A DNA stretch of 31,255 nucleotides from a virus, in the IMG/VR virus record IMGVR_UViG_3300044645_001878, positions 1 through 31,255 of that record. The stretch is one strand, 5' to 3'. Every line of letters begins with the position of its first letter. Position 1 is the first letter of the stretch. Positions 1-26,541 of this stretch are shown here, piece by piece. A model generated the notes under the pieces. The model ran no database searches. It was not told where the DNA came from and worked only from the letters and a program-made list of their open reading frames with translations. Both the position numbers and the translations under genes were made by a program.

Positions 1-189
1 ACAACCGCAATTCTTTCCTTCCTGCCACGCAGGAAATTCACCGTAACGCGGGCGATAGAAATCCACCAATACTTTACGAAGATACTTGCAGGGTTCGGAT
101 TGGATGAAGCGGGTACGGCAACATTCAGAATTGAAGTTGTACGCGCCGGTGGGTTGGGTTTTTGATCGTTCACAGTTGGGGCAGGTCAT
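1..189 (-). CDS. Cys-rich hypothetical protein, partial (3' end outside window)
   Basis: A leftward reading frame opens with ATG at 189 and stays open for 63 codons to the window edge. It begins MTCPNCERSKTQPTGAYNF and holds CxxC (residues 3-6), CC (about 23-24), a further Cys near 33, and CGC at the edge, a pattern that suggests a zinc-ribbon or other metal site. Its start overlaps the stop of the upstream replication-type gene as ATGA, so the two are probably translationally coupled in one leftward early operon. I do not recognise the family; a metal-binding function is inferred from the cysteines only. Confidence 0.7.
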   Translation of the reverse strand, partial: MTCPNCERSKTQPTGAYNFNSECCRTRFIQSEPCKYLRKVLVDFYRPRYGEFPAWQEGKNCGC

Positions 190-611
190 GCGGATTTCAG
201 TTGGTAAACATTTGATTGGGCATTGCGTTCGGCGCGGGCGGCTTTGTAAACCGCTTCTTTGAAATAAATTGGGTGTTCAAAATCGGATTCGTTGATCCCC
301 AATTCTTTGCCCTTCATTTGGATACCTGCCCAGGTTTCATGCCAATCCTTGCCCAATACTTTGCCTGGTATCGTAGTTTGGATTTCATCATCCCATCGTT
401 CGGCGCGAAGCCAGGTTGCGGGGTACGGAATATATGCGTGGTTATCTTTTAACCATTGTTCCGTATTGCATTGCGCCTGGATCGCCGCAAGGATTTGTTC
501 CAGGGGCGGGCGAATGGATTTGGTTTGTTGCCAGGCTTTGCGGGCATCACCTTTGGCAACCTTTCTTGGATACGCTTTGTAAAACGCATCGAAGGCTTGT
601 TCATCGGTCAT
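186..611 (-). CDS. phage replication protein, DnaT/replisome-organiser C-terminal-like domain
   Basis: This 141-aa protein opens with FDAFYKAYPRKVAKGDARKAW (residues about 7-27 region) and has AYIPYPATWLRAERWDDE near residue 60. That pair, an aromatic 'YPRK..K..ARKAW' helix followed by 'I/FPxPATWLxxxRWxDE', is characteristic of the C-terminal region of many phage replication initiators and helicase loaders. The usual N-terminal winged-helix DNA-binding part is absent, so this is either a stand-alone loader module or a trimmed protein. The start ATG at 611 is preceded by AAGGAAAAAAAG. It follows a 59-aa Cys-rich gene and is coupled by ATGA to the Cys-rich gene cut by the window edge. A role in loading the host helicase at the phage origin is inferred from the family resemblance. 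Confidence 0.75.
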   Translation of the reverse strand: MTDEQAFDAFYKAYPRKVAKGDARKAWQQTKSIRPPLEQILAAIQAQCNTEQWLKDNHAYIPYPATWLRAERWDDEIQTTIPGKVLGKDWHETWAGIQMKGKELGINESDFEHPIYFKEAVYKAARAERNAQSNVYQLKSA

Positions 612-645: not shown

Positions 646-825
646 TTACGAATTTGTTTCCTTGATCCGAAAGCAATTGCAAAGTTGCCCTTCGGTGATC
701 CTTTCATGCAAGTTACAAAATTCAAACACACCAACGATTTCAAAGTGTTTGCAACATGAACAATTCGGCATCGCAAAACACTTCACGAACGCTTCACCAA
801 AAAAGGTTTTTTCGTTTTCAGTCAT
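646..825 (-). CDS. small Cys-rich protein (59 aa)
   Basis: ATG at 825 and TAA at 646-648 give 59 residues starting MTENEKTFFGEAFVKC. The ATG is preceded by a strong ribosome site (GAAAGGGG, about 9 nt upstream) and lies about 36 nt downstream of a good leftward promoter. Cysteines are dense: C at about 16, C..CC around 22-25, then FCNLHER and GQLCNCFRI, consistent with a small zinc-binding protein of CCHC or CCCH type. It is the first gene of the leftward early operon and no family is recognised. The good RBS, the promoter position and the ordered Cys/His pattern are the reasons for calling it a real gene. Confidence 0.65.
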   Translation of the reverse strand: MTENEKTFFGEAFVKCFAMPNCSCCKHFEIVGVFEFCNLHERITEGQLCNCFRIKETNS

Positions 826-892: not shown

Positions 893-1327
893 TCATGTAT
901 ATTTTTTTCCGTTTTTTGAACACATTGATTGCCTTATGTATAGGTATTCAATAATTTCACCCAAACGCCCCCCTACCCCCAGGGGGTAAGAAAGCAGGAT
1001 GGCTTCACCCGGAAAAATTCCGACCTTCGCATGGAATGGATTGGATACCATTTCCCCCCGGCTTGAAGGTTCACGCCCGCCGCAGGCTTTACGGATTTGC
1101 ACCGGGTTGGGAAAGCCATTCCCACCATCCTGTACCCTTTTCTTGTCAGCCGCCGGGTTGGGCGCATTGCTACCGCGAACAGTACGGCAACGGCGTGGCA
1201 CAAAAGAAAAACCCCCAATGGCTTTGGTGGGCTTGACCCTTGGCGTGGGCAATCTTGGAAACAGTACGCTTAAACGCAAAGGTAAAAATCTACCCTTTCC
1301 AAGATCACGCAAGCCCACCAAAAACAT
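893..1327 (-). CDS. possible ash/Icd-like ORF in the control region (start uncertain)
   Basis: The frame is open for 144 codons from ATG 1327 to TGA 893. A more likely start is GTG at 1201, which follows GGGGG with 10-nt spacing and lies just after the inverted repeat. The internal text (KPTKAIGGFSFVPRRCRT, then AADKKRVQDGGNGFPNP, QIRKACGGREPS, SNPFHAKVGIF) reminds me of ash/Icd-like ORFs that lie downstream of C4-type antisense RNAs in proteobacterial phages. That resemblance is from memory and untested. Composition differs from neighbouring genes (Arg- and Pro-rich), and both strands carry overlapping open frames, so the conserved element may be RNA rather than protein. A hairpin TACCCCC-A-GGGGGTA lies at 974-988. 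Confidence 0.3.
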   Translation of the reverse strand: MFLVGLRDLGKGRFLPLRLSVLFPRLPTPRVKPTKAIGGFSFVPRRCRTVRGSNAPNPAADKKRVQDGGNGFPNPVQIRKACGGREPSSRGEMVSNPFHAKVGIFPGEAILLSYPLGVGGRLGEIIEYLYIRQSMCSKNGKKYT

Positions 1328-1335
1328 CGGGGGTT
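1210..1335. repeat. large imperfect inverted repeat (arms 1210-1261 and 1296-1335)
   Basis: The left arm contains AACCCCCAATGGCTTTGGTG followed by GGCTTG, and later ATCTTGGAAA. The reverse complement of the right arm reads AACCCCCGATGTTTTTGGTG followed by GGCTTG, CGTG and ATCTTGGAAA. Pairing covers about 40 positions, with one bulge of roughly a dozen bases and a few mismatches. The 34-nt centre holds a small dyad, AAGGTA-AAAATC-TACCCTT. The arms can act as one long hairpin or as an antisense segment plus its target on the same leftward transcript. Confidence 0.85.
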
Positions 1336-1385
1336 GTTGATCCTTTGCATTTTACGCGGTTCCAACGGTTGCCACACCGTTAGCA
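1262..1385 (-). ncRNA. candidate C4/CI-like antisense RNA
   Basis: A leftward sigma70-like promoter (1392-1421) would start a transcript near 1385. Its first segment forms a hairpin AACGGT-loop-ACCGTT (1364-1381), followed by the arm at 1296-1335. That arm is complementary to sequence 35-85 nt further downstream on the same transcript, just before the RBS-like GGGGG of the overlapping ORF. Promoter, short structured RNA, antisense segment, target at a leader RBS and Icd/ash-type ORF is the known order in the immI region of phages P1/P7 and the CI RNA region of P4. Boundaries are approximate and family membership is inferred, not tested. Confidence 0.4.
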
Positions 1386-1391
1386 AGTCCG

Positions 1392-1421
1392 ATTCTGCCC
1401 GAAATTTCTGCCAGGTGTCAA
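1392..1421 (-). promoter_or_regulatory. leftward promoter upstream of the candidate antisense RNA
   Basis: On the minus strand there is a perfect TTGACA (1421-1416), an 18-nt spacer, and CAGAAT (1397-1392, 4/6 to TATAAT). It is the best -35 in the control region. No gene starts directly after it; what follows is the hairpin and inverted-repeat region, which fits an RNA gene. Confidence 0.5.
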
Positions 1422-23848: not shown

Positions 23849-25174
23849 TTAACCAACTAGGCGAACACCTGCGAACACATCCAGGATCGTTGAACAAACG
23901 CGCTTTTCAGCGAATAGGTAAACAAAGCCAGGGGCGGTTTGATCGAATCGCGTGATCTTCATTTGTTGATTGTCCGCAATCGTAACGAAGCGTTGCCAAT
24001 CAGCAAGGTACACCGGGTAATTGCCGGAACCCGCAACATCCATGTACGGGTTCGGGATCACACGATGCCCGAAGATATGAATCACCGCGCCACCATCTTC
24101 ATCGCCAACTTCCAGGAAGTTGTTTGCGGTAGTGCTTGCCTTCAACTTACGAAGTGCCGCAATGGTGGTTGGGTGCATCATCCAACAAGTTGTTGGCTTG
24201 AATAGGTATTGGGCAGGCAATGCGCCCATAAGGTTTGCCAGGTCATCGTAAACAACCGCGCTTGCACTTGCCTGGGTTACTTCCAACACCGTATGAATAC
24301 CGTTGGTAATCGCGCTACCGTTCGAACCGAACGCCGCCGCGCTAGTGCTACCAGGATAAGAATTCAACCCGCGCAAACCACTTGTTGCACCGTATGCGGT
24401 GGTGGTACTGCCGGATTGGTCATCGTTGAACATCATCGAATTTGCTTCGTTTTGCGAAAACTCCAAAGCCAAATCCATAACCAGGGTTTCTTCCAGGTTA
24501 TCAATATCGGAAAGGATCGCAGTACGAACCGGCAACACCGCGTTTACATCGCGGATCGGAAGTTGCCAAAACGAAGTTGCCTGGTTGGGCGAACCTTCGT
24601 TGGTGTTTACACCGTAACCCCAAGGGTTCGTTGTATCGGAACTGTTACCCGTTTTCACCACGAACGCTTGATCGGAACCAATCGTTGTAATTTGGCGGGA
24701 AACCATGCGGAACGGGTTGGCGTAACGAAGGGATGCAAACGCATCATCGTAAATTACGCGACCACCGGCATCCGAACCGGAACCGGTTAGCGCACTTGCT
24801 TCGCGCAGGTTTACTACGGATTGCCCTTCAACAAGGGCTTCTTTGATGCCTTGAAAGATTGCGTTATTGTCCATTTTCCTTAATTCCTTTTCTGCCCATG
24901 TTTTACCCGGATCACCGCCCCATAATGCCCAGGCGATGCGACCCGCACTTGGGTAACCATCTTCGCCAGGCTTCCATCCTTTACCCTGCTTATCGACTTC
25001 ATGCCGCGCAAAGTAACTTACCATTCTTGCAATCGTTGCGCGGGGCAAATCTTTGCCATTGCTAATATCACGCGCCCTTGCAACTCCAATTTCTGTACCG
25101 CCACGCCCAAATTCCTTCCGCCAATCCAATCCCCTTCGGGCTTCGGCTTTCATGGCATCGGTTGATTTAGGCAT
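23849..25174 (-). CDS. second HK97-type major-capsid-like protein with N-terminal fused domain (441 aa)
   Basis: Residues 1-99 form a separate module: MPKSTDAMKAEARRGLDWRK, GRGGTEIGVARARDISNGKD, ATIARMVSYFARHEVDKQGK, GRIAWALWGGDPGKTWAEKE, text known from phage head-gene neighbourhoods. Residues about 101-441 are a capsid domain clearly paralogous to the next upstream gene: EASALTGSGSDAGGRVIYDD, FNDDQSGSTTTAYGATSGLR, RFDQTAPGFVYLFAEKRVCS. It lacks the long coiled-coil prodomain of the other copy. An internal ATG at 24874 has its own ribosome site (AAGGAATTAAGGAAA), so a 341-aa short form is likely. It may be a minor or decoration capsid subunit. Confidence 0.88.
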   Translation of the reverse strand: MPKSTDAMKAEARRGLDWRKEFGRGGTEIGVARARDISNGKDLPRATIARMVSYFARHEVDKQGKGWKPGEDGYPSAGRIAWALWGGDPGKTWAEKELRKMDNNAIFQGIKEALVEGQSVVNLREASALTGSGSDAGGRVIYDDAFASLRYANPFRMVSRQITTIGSDQAFVVKTGNSSDTTNPWGYGVNTNEGSPNQATSFWQLPIRDVNAVLPVRTAILSDIDNLEETLVMDLALEFSQNEANSMMFNDDQSGSTTTAYGATSGLRGLNSYPGSTSAAAFGSNGSAITNGIHTVLEVTQASASAVVYDDLANLMGALPAQYLFKPTTCWMMHPTTIAALRKLKASTTANNFLEVGDEDGGAVIHIFGHRVIPNPYMDVAGSGNYPVYLADWQRFVTIADNQQMKITRFDQTAPGFVYLFAEKRVCSTILDVFAGVRLVG

Positions 25175-25199
25175 TTATTTTTTCCTGTTCATTTAAGAA

Positions 25200-25218
25200 G
25201 GGGGGCGCGAAGCCCCCC
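25200..25218 (-). other. intercistronic hairpin between the two capsid genes
   Basis: Leftward: GGGGGGC-TTCGC-GCCCCCC, a 7-bp all-GC stem, six bases after the stop of the first capsid gene. No T-run follows (TTCTTAAATG), so it is likely an mRNA 3'-end stabiliser or weak attenuator that separates expression of the two capsid paralogues. Confidence 0.6.
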
Positions 25219-25224
25219 ATCCAA

Positions 25225-26541
25225 TTACGCGCCCGTTGCAGTAGAACGGTAACGAATGATCGCGAAAGGATCAACAACGCTTGAGCAAACGCGCTTTTCA
25301 CCGTAGAAGGTGATGAAACCAGGCGCAGTTTGATCGTAACGGCGAAGAACCATGTTAAGGCGATCAACGATAGTATGTCCGCGAGTGAAATCGCCGAAAT
25401 ACATTGGGTATTGCGAAGTAGTACCGGCGGAACCACCAACGGCAACCGGGCTATCAACATAGTTGTTAACAACTACATCGTAACCAAGCAACTTACCAAT
25501 GATGCCATCGGTAACCAACGGAGCCATGCGTTCGAAAACAGGCGTACCGTTATCATCCTTCAAGCCACGAATACCGGCGAGCATAAGCGGGCTAATCATC
25601 CACTTATTACCGTTGTTCCAATATTGTTGCGGCAAGGTGTATAGGAAGTTAATCAGATCGCTATAAGTAACATTGTTAGTTGCGGCGAATCCGTTAGTAG
25701 TTTCCTGGTCATAAGTTGCAATTGAGTGCAAACCGGCAGTTGCGCCCGTACCGCTAGTACCAAAAGCGGCAACGCTTGCAGTACCACCGGCGTACGAACC
25801 GTTCGCGCCTGGATAGAAATCCAAACCACGCAAACCGTTAGTGCCACCCGTTGCAGTAGTAGTTGAACCTGATTGATCGTTGTTGGCGATCATAGATGCG
25901 CCTTCAACTTGCGAGAATTCAACCAACATATCATCAACCACATTGGCTTCCAAACCATCAATATCATCCAATGCCGCAGTACGGATCGGGAATTGAGTGT
26001 TCACATCTTGAAGGTTCAATTGCCAAATGTTCGTGTTTTCAGTAGTTGCCGAACCGTTGTTTTGGATCGTGTAACCCCATGTTGCACCTGCATTACCGGT
26101 TTTTGCGCGGAACTGATAAGTTGCGCCATCGGTAGATACATTGCGAGAAAGACCGCGCATTGGGTTAGCCAAACGAAGTGCGTGGAACACAGGATCGTAA
26201 GCAGTACGACCACCAACGCCCGCGCCTGAACCGGTTAGTGCGCTTGCTTCTTTTAGGTACGCATCATACTGATCGACAGATTCGAACATTTTGATTTCGC
26301 GTTCAAGGGTATTGCCCTTGGCAACGAATTCTTTAAGTTGTGATTTAACCATGCGGTTAACATCGCCCTTAATAGTTTTTGCCGGTGCTTGAATAATCGC
26401 AGGGGCTTTAACTTCCGCAACCTTGGCTTCAAGGGCGGCGATCTTTTCTGCCACTTCGCCTTTTACGGCTTCAACGGCTTCGGCAATCTTGGCTTGTTGG
26501 TTGGCTTCGATTGCATCAAGTTTTTCAAATACTTTTTCCAT
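25225..26541 (-). CDS. major capsid protein, HK97 fold (438 aa)
   Basis: An N-terminal coiled coil of about 70 residues (MEKVFEKLDAIEANQQAKIA, EKIAALEAKVAEVK) acts as the scaffolding delta domain that the prohead protease removes. The mature domain starts near EASALTGSGAGVGGRTAYDP, with ANNDQSGSTTTATGGTNGLR (A/P domain) and RRYDQTAPGFITFYGEKRVC near the C-terminus. RBS AAAGGAAATGCAAA. Protease gene directly upstream, paralogue directly downstream. This is presumed to be the main shell protein since it alone has the prodomain. Confidence 0.95.
   Translation of the reverse strand: MEKVFEKLDAIEANQQAKIAEAVEAVKGEVAEKIAALEAKVAEVKAPAIIQAPAKTIKGDVNRMVKSQLKEFVAKGNTLEREIKMFESVDQYDAYLKEASALTGSGAGVGGRTAYDPVFHALRLANPMRGLSRNVSTDGATYQFRAKTGNAGATWGYTIQNNGSATTENTNIWQLNLQDVNTQFPIRTAALDDIDGLEANVVDDMLVEFSQVEGASMIANNDQSGSTTTATGGTNGLRGLDFYPGANGSYAGGTASVAAFGTSGTGATAGLHSIATYDQETTNGFAATNNVTYSDLINFLYTLPQQYWNNGNKWMISPLMLAGIRGLKDDNGTPVFERMAPLVTDGIIGKLLGYDVVVNNYVDSPVAVGGSAGTTSQYPMYFGDFTRGHTIVDRLNMVLRRYDQTAPGFITFYGEKRVCSSVVDPFAIIRYRSTATGA

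What the first reader, a model, noticed from the sequence alone, without database searches (positions are those of the whole stretch)
893..1421. Probable C4/CI-like antisense-RNA immunity module between divergent early operons
Seen: a leftward promoter with perfect TTGACA, then a hairpin (AACGGT...ACCGTT), then an antisense arm (1296-1335) complementary to a downstream leader segment (1210-1261) that ends at an RBS-like GGGGG and an overlapping Arg/Pro-rich ORF. Known: P1/P7 immI (c4 RNA and icd) and P4 CI RNA use this order to block translation and elongation. Inference: this phage has an RNA-based repressor, which would explain the lack of a visible protein repressor in the window.
Basis: partly seen in the sequence, partly recalled or inferred. 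Interest (0 to 1): 0.75.

Follow-up and report, generated by a model that had tools for sequence, protein, structure and literature searches.

The report
Phage RNA antisense attenuator, hypervariable arms
Upstream of a phage DNA-replication gene lies a short structured RNA that ends in a transcription terminator and carries a pair of matching, fast-changing arms; close phage relatives swap the arms as a set, so it probably lets each phage recognise and switch off its own kind by RNA alone.

Summary
The leftward promoter, the small hairpin and the long complementary arms are really there. The long arms (1210-1261 / 1296-1335) are not antisense and target. They are the two strands of one hairpin (H2, with its inner stem hpA) that ends in UUUUUCUUUU, an intrinsic-terminator-like structure. 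The RBS and ORF reading fails. The window is not a C4 RNA by covariance model (no hit at E<=10; P1 and P4 controls hit). It belongs to a family absent from Rfam: I found about 39 modules (about 27 distinct) in viral contigs, all with promoter, H1 hairpin (loop GUGGCA), variable segment X, H2 terminator holding X' and a GCCA loop. Stems covary (0/500 shuffles). X pairs with its own X' (-20.3 kcal/mol) far better than with others' (-12.4; 0/20000 permutations). Relatives with nearly identical flanks carry unrelated X/X' sets that do not cross-pair. The module usually precedes a replication-initiation gene; no integrase or CI-type HTH repressor was found in 16 records. Best reading: an RNA attenuator whose terminated product acts in trans on X, giving RNA-specified immunity or incompatibility. 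It works like C4/P4 CI but is a distinct family with an intrinsic terminator and no detectable downstream target. Transcription and trans action are inferred.

The parts
1392..1421 (-). leftward promoter, TTGACA (1421-1416), 18 nt, CAGAAT (1397-1392)
   Evidence: in 20 of 23 members listed a promoter-like -10 ends 12-13 nt before the H1 core
1362..1383 (-). H1 hairpin, 8 bp, loop GUGGCA
   Evidence: 100% of cells paired in 13 type-B and 12 type-A members
1342..1359 (-). X, hypervariable arm
   Evidence: pairs with cognate X' at -18.9 kcal/mol against non-cognate mean -11.4
1310..1335 (-). H2 5' strand
1251..1306 (-). hpA inner hairpin (stem 1296-1306 / 1251-1261) presenting X' in its loop
   Evidence: 6 of 11 pairs with changes on both sides
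1266..1283 (-). X', complementary to X
1236..1250 (-). hpB hairpin with loop ACGCCAA (relatives mostly AUGCCAA); GCCA complements UGGC of the H1 loop
1210..1235 (-). H2 3' strand
   Evidence: 8 of 25 H2 pairs with changes on both sides
1202..1211 (-). U tract UUUUUCUUUU directly after H2 (terminator)
   Evidence: sequence; present in all module members
1189..1200 (-). P0 segment UGCCACGCCGUU, complementary to the H1 5' strand and loop
   Evidence: (I10)
950..1188 (-). downstream conserved structured leader (3' domain), reached only by read-through
   Evidence: 7 pairs with compensatory changes over the whole A2 structure of 5 relatives, 5 of them in this 3' domain; energy alone not unusual (z -0.76)
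646..825 (-). 59-aa ORF, first gene of the leftward operon, function unknown
186..611 (-). replication-initiation protein (phrog_270), likely regulated gene
   Evidence: E 9e-19

Best explanation
It is the leader of the phage's replication operon, built as an antisense-controlled transcription attenuator. A leftward promoter starts RNA at H1. Most transcripts stop at H2, giving a roughly 185-195-nt RNA that shows X single-stranded, X' in a hairpin loop, and a GCCA loop complementary to the H1 loop. On a new transcript, X can first pair with X' as it emerges, delaying H2 and letting polymerase run on into the rep gene. When terminated RNA from a resident or co-infecting phage with the same X/X' set is present, its X' (with the GCCA loop) binds nascent X (with the H1 loop), H2 forms, and the rep operon is not transcribed. 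Specificity lies in X/X', so phages with different sets ignore each other: immunity or incompatibility by RNA alone. Shown by computation: conserved promoter position, fold with covariation, cognate X:X' complementarity, set swapping between near-identical phages, position before rep. Inferred: transcription, termination, trans action, immunity.
For: Type-B alignment: 94.7% cells paired, 16 of 48 pairs with both sides changed, 0/500 shuffles. Type A: 97.9%, 10 of 51, 0/500. A model built from type B only finds type-A members at E 1e-16 to 1e-29. Cognate X:X' -20.3 against non-cognate -12.4 kcal/mol, 0/20000 permutations. 22 of 35 flank-matched pairs have X at or near random identity, e.g. L091/L113 flanks 100% and 99%, X 45%. 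In such pairs cognate -19.3, crossed -10.0, shuffled -11.8. Before the H2 3' strand is made, X:X' is favoured in 17 of 27; in the terminated RNA H2 wins in nearly all. -10 to H1 distance fixed at 12-13 nt in 20 of 23. Rep-initiation gene downstream in the window, L063, L087, L090, L098 and L034/L035. No PF00589, PF00239 or PF13614, and no HTH_3 above cut-off, in 16 records.
Against: No RNA data. In the window itself X:X' is not favoured even in the truncated RNA (1.6 pairs). No recognised integrase or partition pair, so a lysogenic state that would need immunity is unproven. Members were found with a pattern containing the H1 loop, so its conservation is partly by construction, except in L033-L036, which were first reached through the rep gene. 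Most records are fragments.
Confidence: 0.62

Rival explanations
1. Cis-only attenuator: X:X' is just an antiterminator helix responding to a protein, ribosome or transcription speed. Arms drift freely because only complementarity matters, and there is no trans-acting immunity.
For: X:X' against H2 alone makes a two-state leader; no lysogeny genes recognised.
Against: Drift does not readily explain wholesale replacement of both arms between phages whose flanks are 90-100% identical while H2 is usually kept, nor crossed sets pairing no better than shuffled sequence.
Confidence: 0.2
2. True member or direct descendant of the C4/P4-CI antisense RNA family.
For: Same layout: upstream hairpin with a UGGC loop, outer stem, arm in an inner hairpin loop, GCCA segment before the closing strand; a1/a' core UUUGGCAG / UUGCCAAC in RF03163/RF01695.
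Against: No RF01695 or RF03163 hit in window or relatives, while P1 and P4 score 68.8 and 74.9 bits. The reverse search with model R1 misses P1 and P4. No downstream target. Intrinsic terminator built into the stem.
Confidence: 0.08
3. Copy-number control of a plasmid-like phage, as in antisense attenuation of plasmid rep genes: same mechanism, but the role is copy control and incompatibility rather than immunity against infection.
For: Directly upstream of rep in several members; no integrase; ParB_N domain in two related records.
Against: No ParA; full virion gene set; no plasmid record matches.
Confidence: 0.25
4. A small protein gene (Arg/Pro-rich ORF, icd-like).
For: Open frame of 144 aa in the window and L061.
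Against: Frame broken in L062-L064; no convincing family hit; covariation with G-U pairs on the RNA strand.
Confidence: 0.02

Closest known systems
C4 antisense RNA of phages P1/P7 (RF01695) with c4-a1b1 (RF03163)
   Same: Regulatory RNA cotranscribed with its target; upstream target in a hairpin with a UGGC/UGAC loop; complementary arm in an inner hairpin loop plus a GCC(A)/GUC(A) segment before the closing strand; specificity by base pairing.
   Different: No model hit; arms about 15-25 nt and hypervariable rather than 7-8 nt; RNA ends in its own intrinsic terminator; no second target near an RBS; downstream genes are rep rather than icd/ant.
CI RNA immunity of satellite phage P4
   Same: Prevents replication-gene expression by premature termination, with an upstream target in the same leader (PMC4825925).
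   Different: P4 CI is processed from the transcript and pairs with seqA upstream and seqC downstream; here no downstream site was found and the terminator is intrinsic.
Antisense-induced attenuation of plasmid rep genes such as pT181 repC (own knowledge)
   Same: Competing anti-terminator and terminator in a rep leader; antisense RNA forces termination.
   Different: There the antisense RNA comes from the opposite strand; here sense and antisense arms lie on the same RNA.
Betaproteobacteria-1 RNA (RF02932)
   Same: Lies immediately downstream of the module in 7 of 30 records searched.
   Different: Not part of the module, absent from the window, and in bacterial genomes found without it.

Membership tests
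C4 antisense RNA (RF01695) | match to the covariance model | tested here: not met
   no hit at gathering or E<=10 in the window, none in 8 relatives at E<=5; P1 and P4 controls hit
C4 antisense RNA (RF01695) | upstream target hairpins a1/b1 complementary to a'/b' | tested here: met
   H1 loop UGGC / hpB GCCA, and X/X'; analogous, not a c4-a1b1 model hit
C4 antisense RNA (RF01695) | downstream target a2/b2 near the RBS of the regulated gene | tested here: not met
   best downstream pairing of X' -18.8 against -18.6 for shuffled sequence
C4 antisense RNA (RF01695) | icd/ant-type open frame after the RNA | tested here: not met
   frames not conserved, no convincing family hit
C4 antisense RNA (RF01695) | small stable RNA cut from a longer transcript | not testable with these tools
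   no transcript data; the terminator suggests an end by termination instead
Antisense-controlled transcription attenuator | intrinsic terminator in a leader before the regulated gene | tested here: met
   H2 plus U tract in all module members; rep downstream in several
Antisense-controlled transcription attenuator | competing earlier pairing that excludes the terminator | tested here: inconclusive
   favoured in 17 of 27 truncated RNAs, but not in the window's own
Antisense-controlled transcription attenuator | trans-acting RNA changes termination | not testable with these tools
   needs a reporter or in vitro transcription

The most novel reading that the evidence does not exclude
A previously undescribed family of RNA-only immunity or incompatibility systems in (probably betaproteobacterial, freshwater) phages that lack recognisable integrase and CI repressor. 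One transcript carries both a hypervariable antisense arm and its target, self-terminates, and sets which phages exclude each other; specificity sets are swapped as cassettes.
Probability: 0.45. Interest if true: 0.85.

Novelty: new variant of a known kind. Interest (0 to 1): 0.72.

Why it matters
C4 and P4 CI have stood as a rare class of phage immunity RNA. A second, unrelated-by-model family with the same layout, in uncultured aquatic phages, would show that RNA immunity is commoner and more inventive than thought. It makes a clear test possible: X/X' sequence alone should predict which phages exclude each other, and the terminated RNA is small enough to clone and swap.

Tried and rejected
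Rfam on window and relatives: only RF02932, outside the module. Coding hypothesis. Genome scan with GGGTCAAGCCCACCNAAGC: chance hits where inspected, mostly in coding sequence. Model R1 in 399 genomes of the Limnohabitans family: only 36-80-nt terminator-like matches. H1 pattern in 399 order-level genomes: none. Annotated phage and plasmid records: no significant match. Nearest cultured phage by TerL, Methylophilaceae phage P19250A (70%), lacks the module. Second downstream target for X': none. P0 helix: stronger than shuffled tails (-19.0 against -15.7) but not cognate-specific by permutation (0.12), so only suggestive. Structural meaning of the 3' domain left open. Kissing H1/hpB loops: consistent but not independently proven, because the search pattern fixed the H1 loop. 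About half of the 74 pattern loci are chance hits, mostly in genes, and were dropped by inspection.

Full report
WHAT IS THERE. On the minus strand a promoter-like site TTGACA-18-CAGAAT (1421-1392) precedes H1 (1362-1383, loop GUGGCA). A long hairpin follows: H2 strands 1310-1335 and 1210-1235, inner stem hpA 1296-1306 / 1251-1261, small hairpin hpB 1236-1250. H2 runs straight into UUUUUCUUUU (1211-1202). The 193-nt RNA folds at -86.3 kcal/mol, z -7.6, 0/200 shuffles.

NOT A GENE, NOT C4 BY MODEL. The 144-aa frame is open in the window and L061 but broken in L062-L064 by indels and stops, and no protein family matches convincingly. Rfam gives no C4 or c4-a1b1 hit at gathering or E<=10, while the same search finds C4 in P4 (74.9 bits) and in P1 (68.8 bits, with c4-a1b1 at 51 bits).

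RELATIVES. A pattern scan found four homologous contigs besides a 100%-identical one (L004). A second found L065 with only the 5' module conserved. Independently, contigs reached through the rep protein (L033-L036) carry the same organisation just before rep, L033 with a different H1 loop. A scan with the H1 motif gave 74 loci. About half are the real module, judged by eye from the shared layout; 27 are distinct after removing duplicates. A model built from the 13 window-type members alone (R1) finds nine members not used to build it (eight type A and L101), at E 1e-16 to 1e-29.

STRUCTURE IS CONSERVED. Window-type members: 94.7% of cells pair, 16 of 48 pairs change on both sides, 53 such cells against 16.6 in shuffles, 0/500. 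Type A: 97.9%, 10 of 51 pairs, 25 cells against 7.4, 0/500. Sliding the partners destroys the signal in both. G-U pairs fall on the minus-strand RNA. In 20 of 23 members listed a promoter-like -10 ends 12-13 nt before the H1 core, so the RNA start is fixed.

THE ARMS THAT MATTER. Between H1 and H2 lies X (window 1342-1359); in the hpA loop lies X' (1266-1283). Both differ widely among members, yet each X pairs with its own X': mean -20.3 against -12.4 kcal/mol for non-cognate, 0 of 20000 permutations (window -18.9 against -11.4). Among pairs of contigs whose two flanks are over 85% identical, 22 of 35 have X at or near the identity expected for unrelated sequences (some of these pairs involve duplicate contigs, so the independent cases are about five). 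In nine such pairs cognate pairing averages -19.3, crossed -10.0, shuffled -11.8. So the arms are exchanged together as a specificity set.

HOW IT PROBABLY WORKS. Before the 3' strand of H2 is made, X:X' is favoured in 17 of 27 members; in the finished terminated RNA H2 wins in nearly all. That is the behaviour of an anti-terminator and a terminator. The terminated RNA leaves X free and X' in a loop, ready to act in trans. I infer that such RNA binds X on a nascent transcript, prevents X:X' in cis, and lets H2 terminate before the replication operon. The window itself does not show the early X:X' preference by energy (1.6 pairs), which weakens this step for this member. The hpB GCCA loop complements the H1 loop and may help pairing; the H1 loop was fixed by the search pattern, so this is only consistent.

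CONTEXT. The next recognised gene is a replication-initiation protein in the window, L063, L087, L090, L098 and L034/L035. Other members have HNH and methyltransferase, or primase/helicase, genes further down. Divergent genes are Erf, Sak or exonuclease types. The module thus sits where lambdoid phages keep their immunity region (comparison from own knowledge). In 16 records, several of 31-37 kb, no tyrosine or serine recombinase and no ParA was found, and HTH_3 gave only one match below its cut-off; ParB_N appears in two. Records may be fragments, so absence is suggestive only. The nearest cultured phage by TerL infects a Methylophilaceae bacterium (70%) and lacks the module.

COMPARISON. P4 blocks its replication genes by premature termination through CI RNA pairing with seqA upstream and seqC downstream (PMC4825925). 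The present module has the upstream site but no detectable downstream site, and carries its own intrinsic terminator. It works like C4/CI in layout, but model tests in both directions fail, so I do not file it as C4.

VERDICT. A real, structured, previously uncatalogued RNA module (very likely); an antisense attenuator of the replication operon (probable); an immunity or incompatibility determinant (about even).

Noticed in passing
950-1188 (minus): A conserved structured 3' domain follows the terminator, with compensatory changes in 5 relatives. Other members carry different 3' domains; in seven it is Rfam Betaproteobacteria-1 (RF02932), so this slot is exchangeable. Its role is unknown.
   Followed up: partly
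L160, L161: In these bacterial genomes RF02932 directly follows what looks like a toprim/primase-type coding sequence, without the H1-H2 module, which suggests RF02932 is itself a mobile-element leader RNA.
   Followed up: no
L068:1-1100 (minus): A tRNA-like sequence is followed by ACCCGGTGCAAATCCGTAAA and TACCCTTGTGGGGTAGGGGG, both resembling motifs of the window's 3' domain.
   Followed up: no
1448-1465: CTAGGTGGTTTCCCTA (minus strand) recurs as CTAGGTANTTTCCCTA-like motifs upstream of homologues of the 1565 gene in L005, L006, L008 and L012; a possible shared operator.
   Followed up: no
846-890 and 1483-1520: Repeated TTGTTTACACC / GTTAACA elements flank the region on both sides, with a second leftward promoter-like site TTAACA-17-TATCGT at 889-861.
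   Followed up: no
23849-26541 (minus): Two tandem genes both match the major head protein family phrog_10.
   Followed up: no
L098:3606-3914: In several type-A phages a same-strand ORF of about 102 aa ends 26 nt before the H1 core; no family match.
   Followed up: partly
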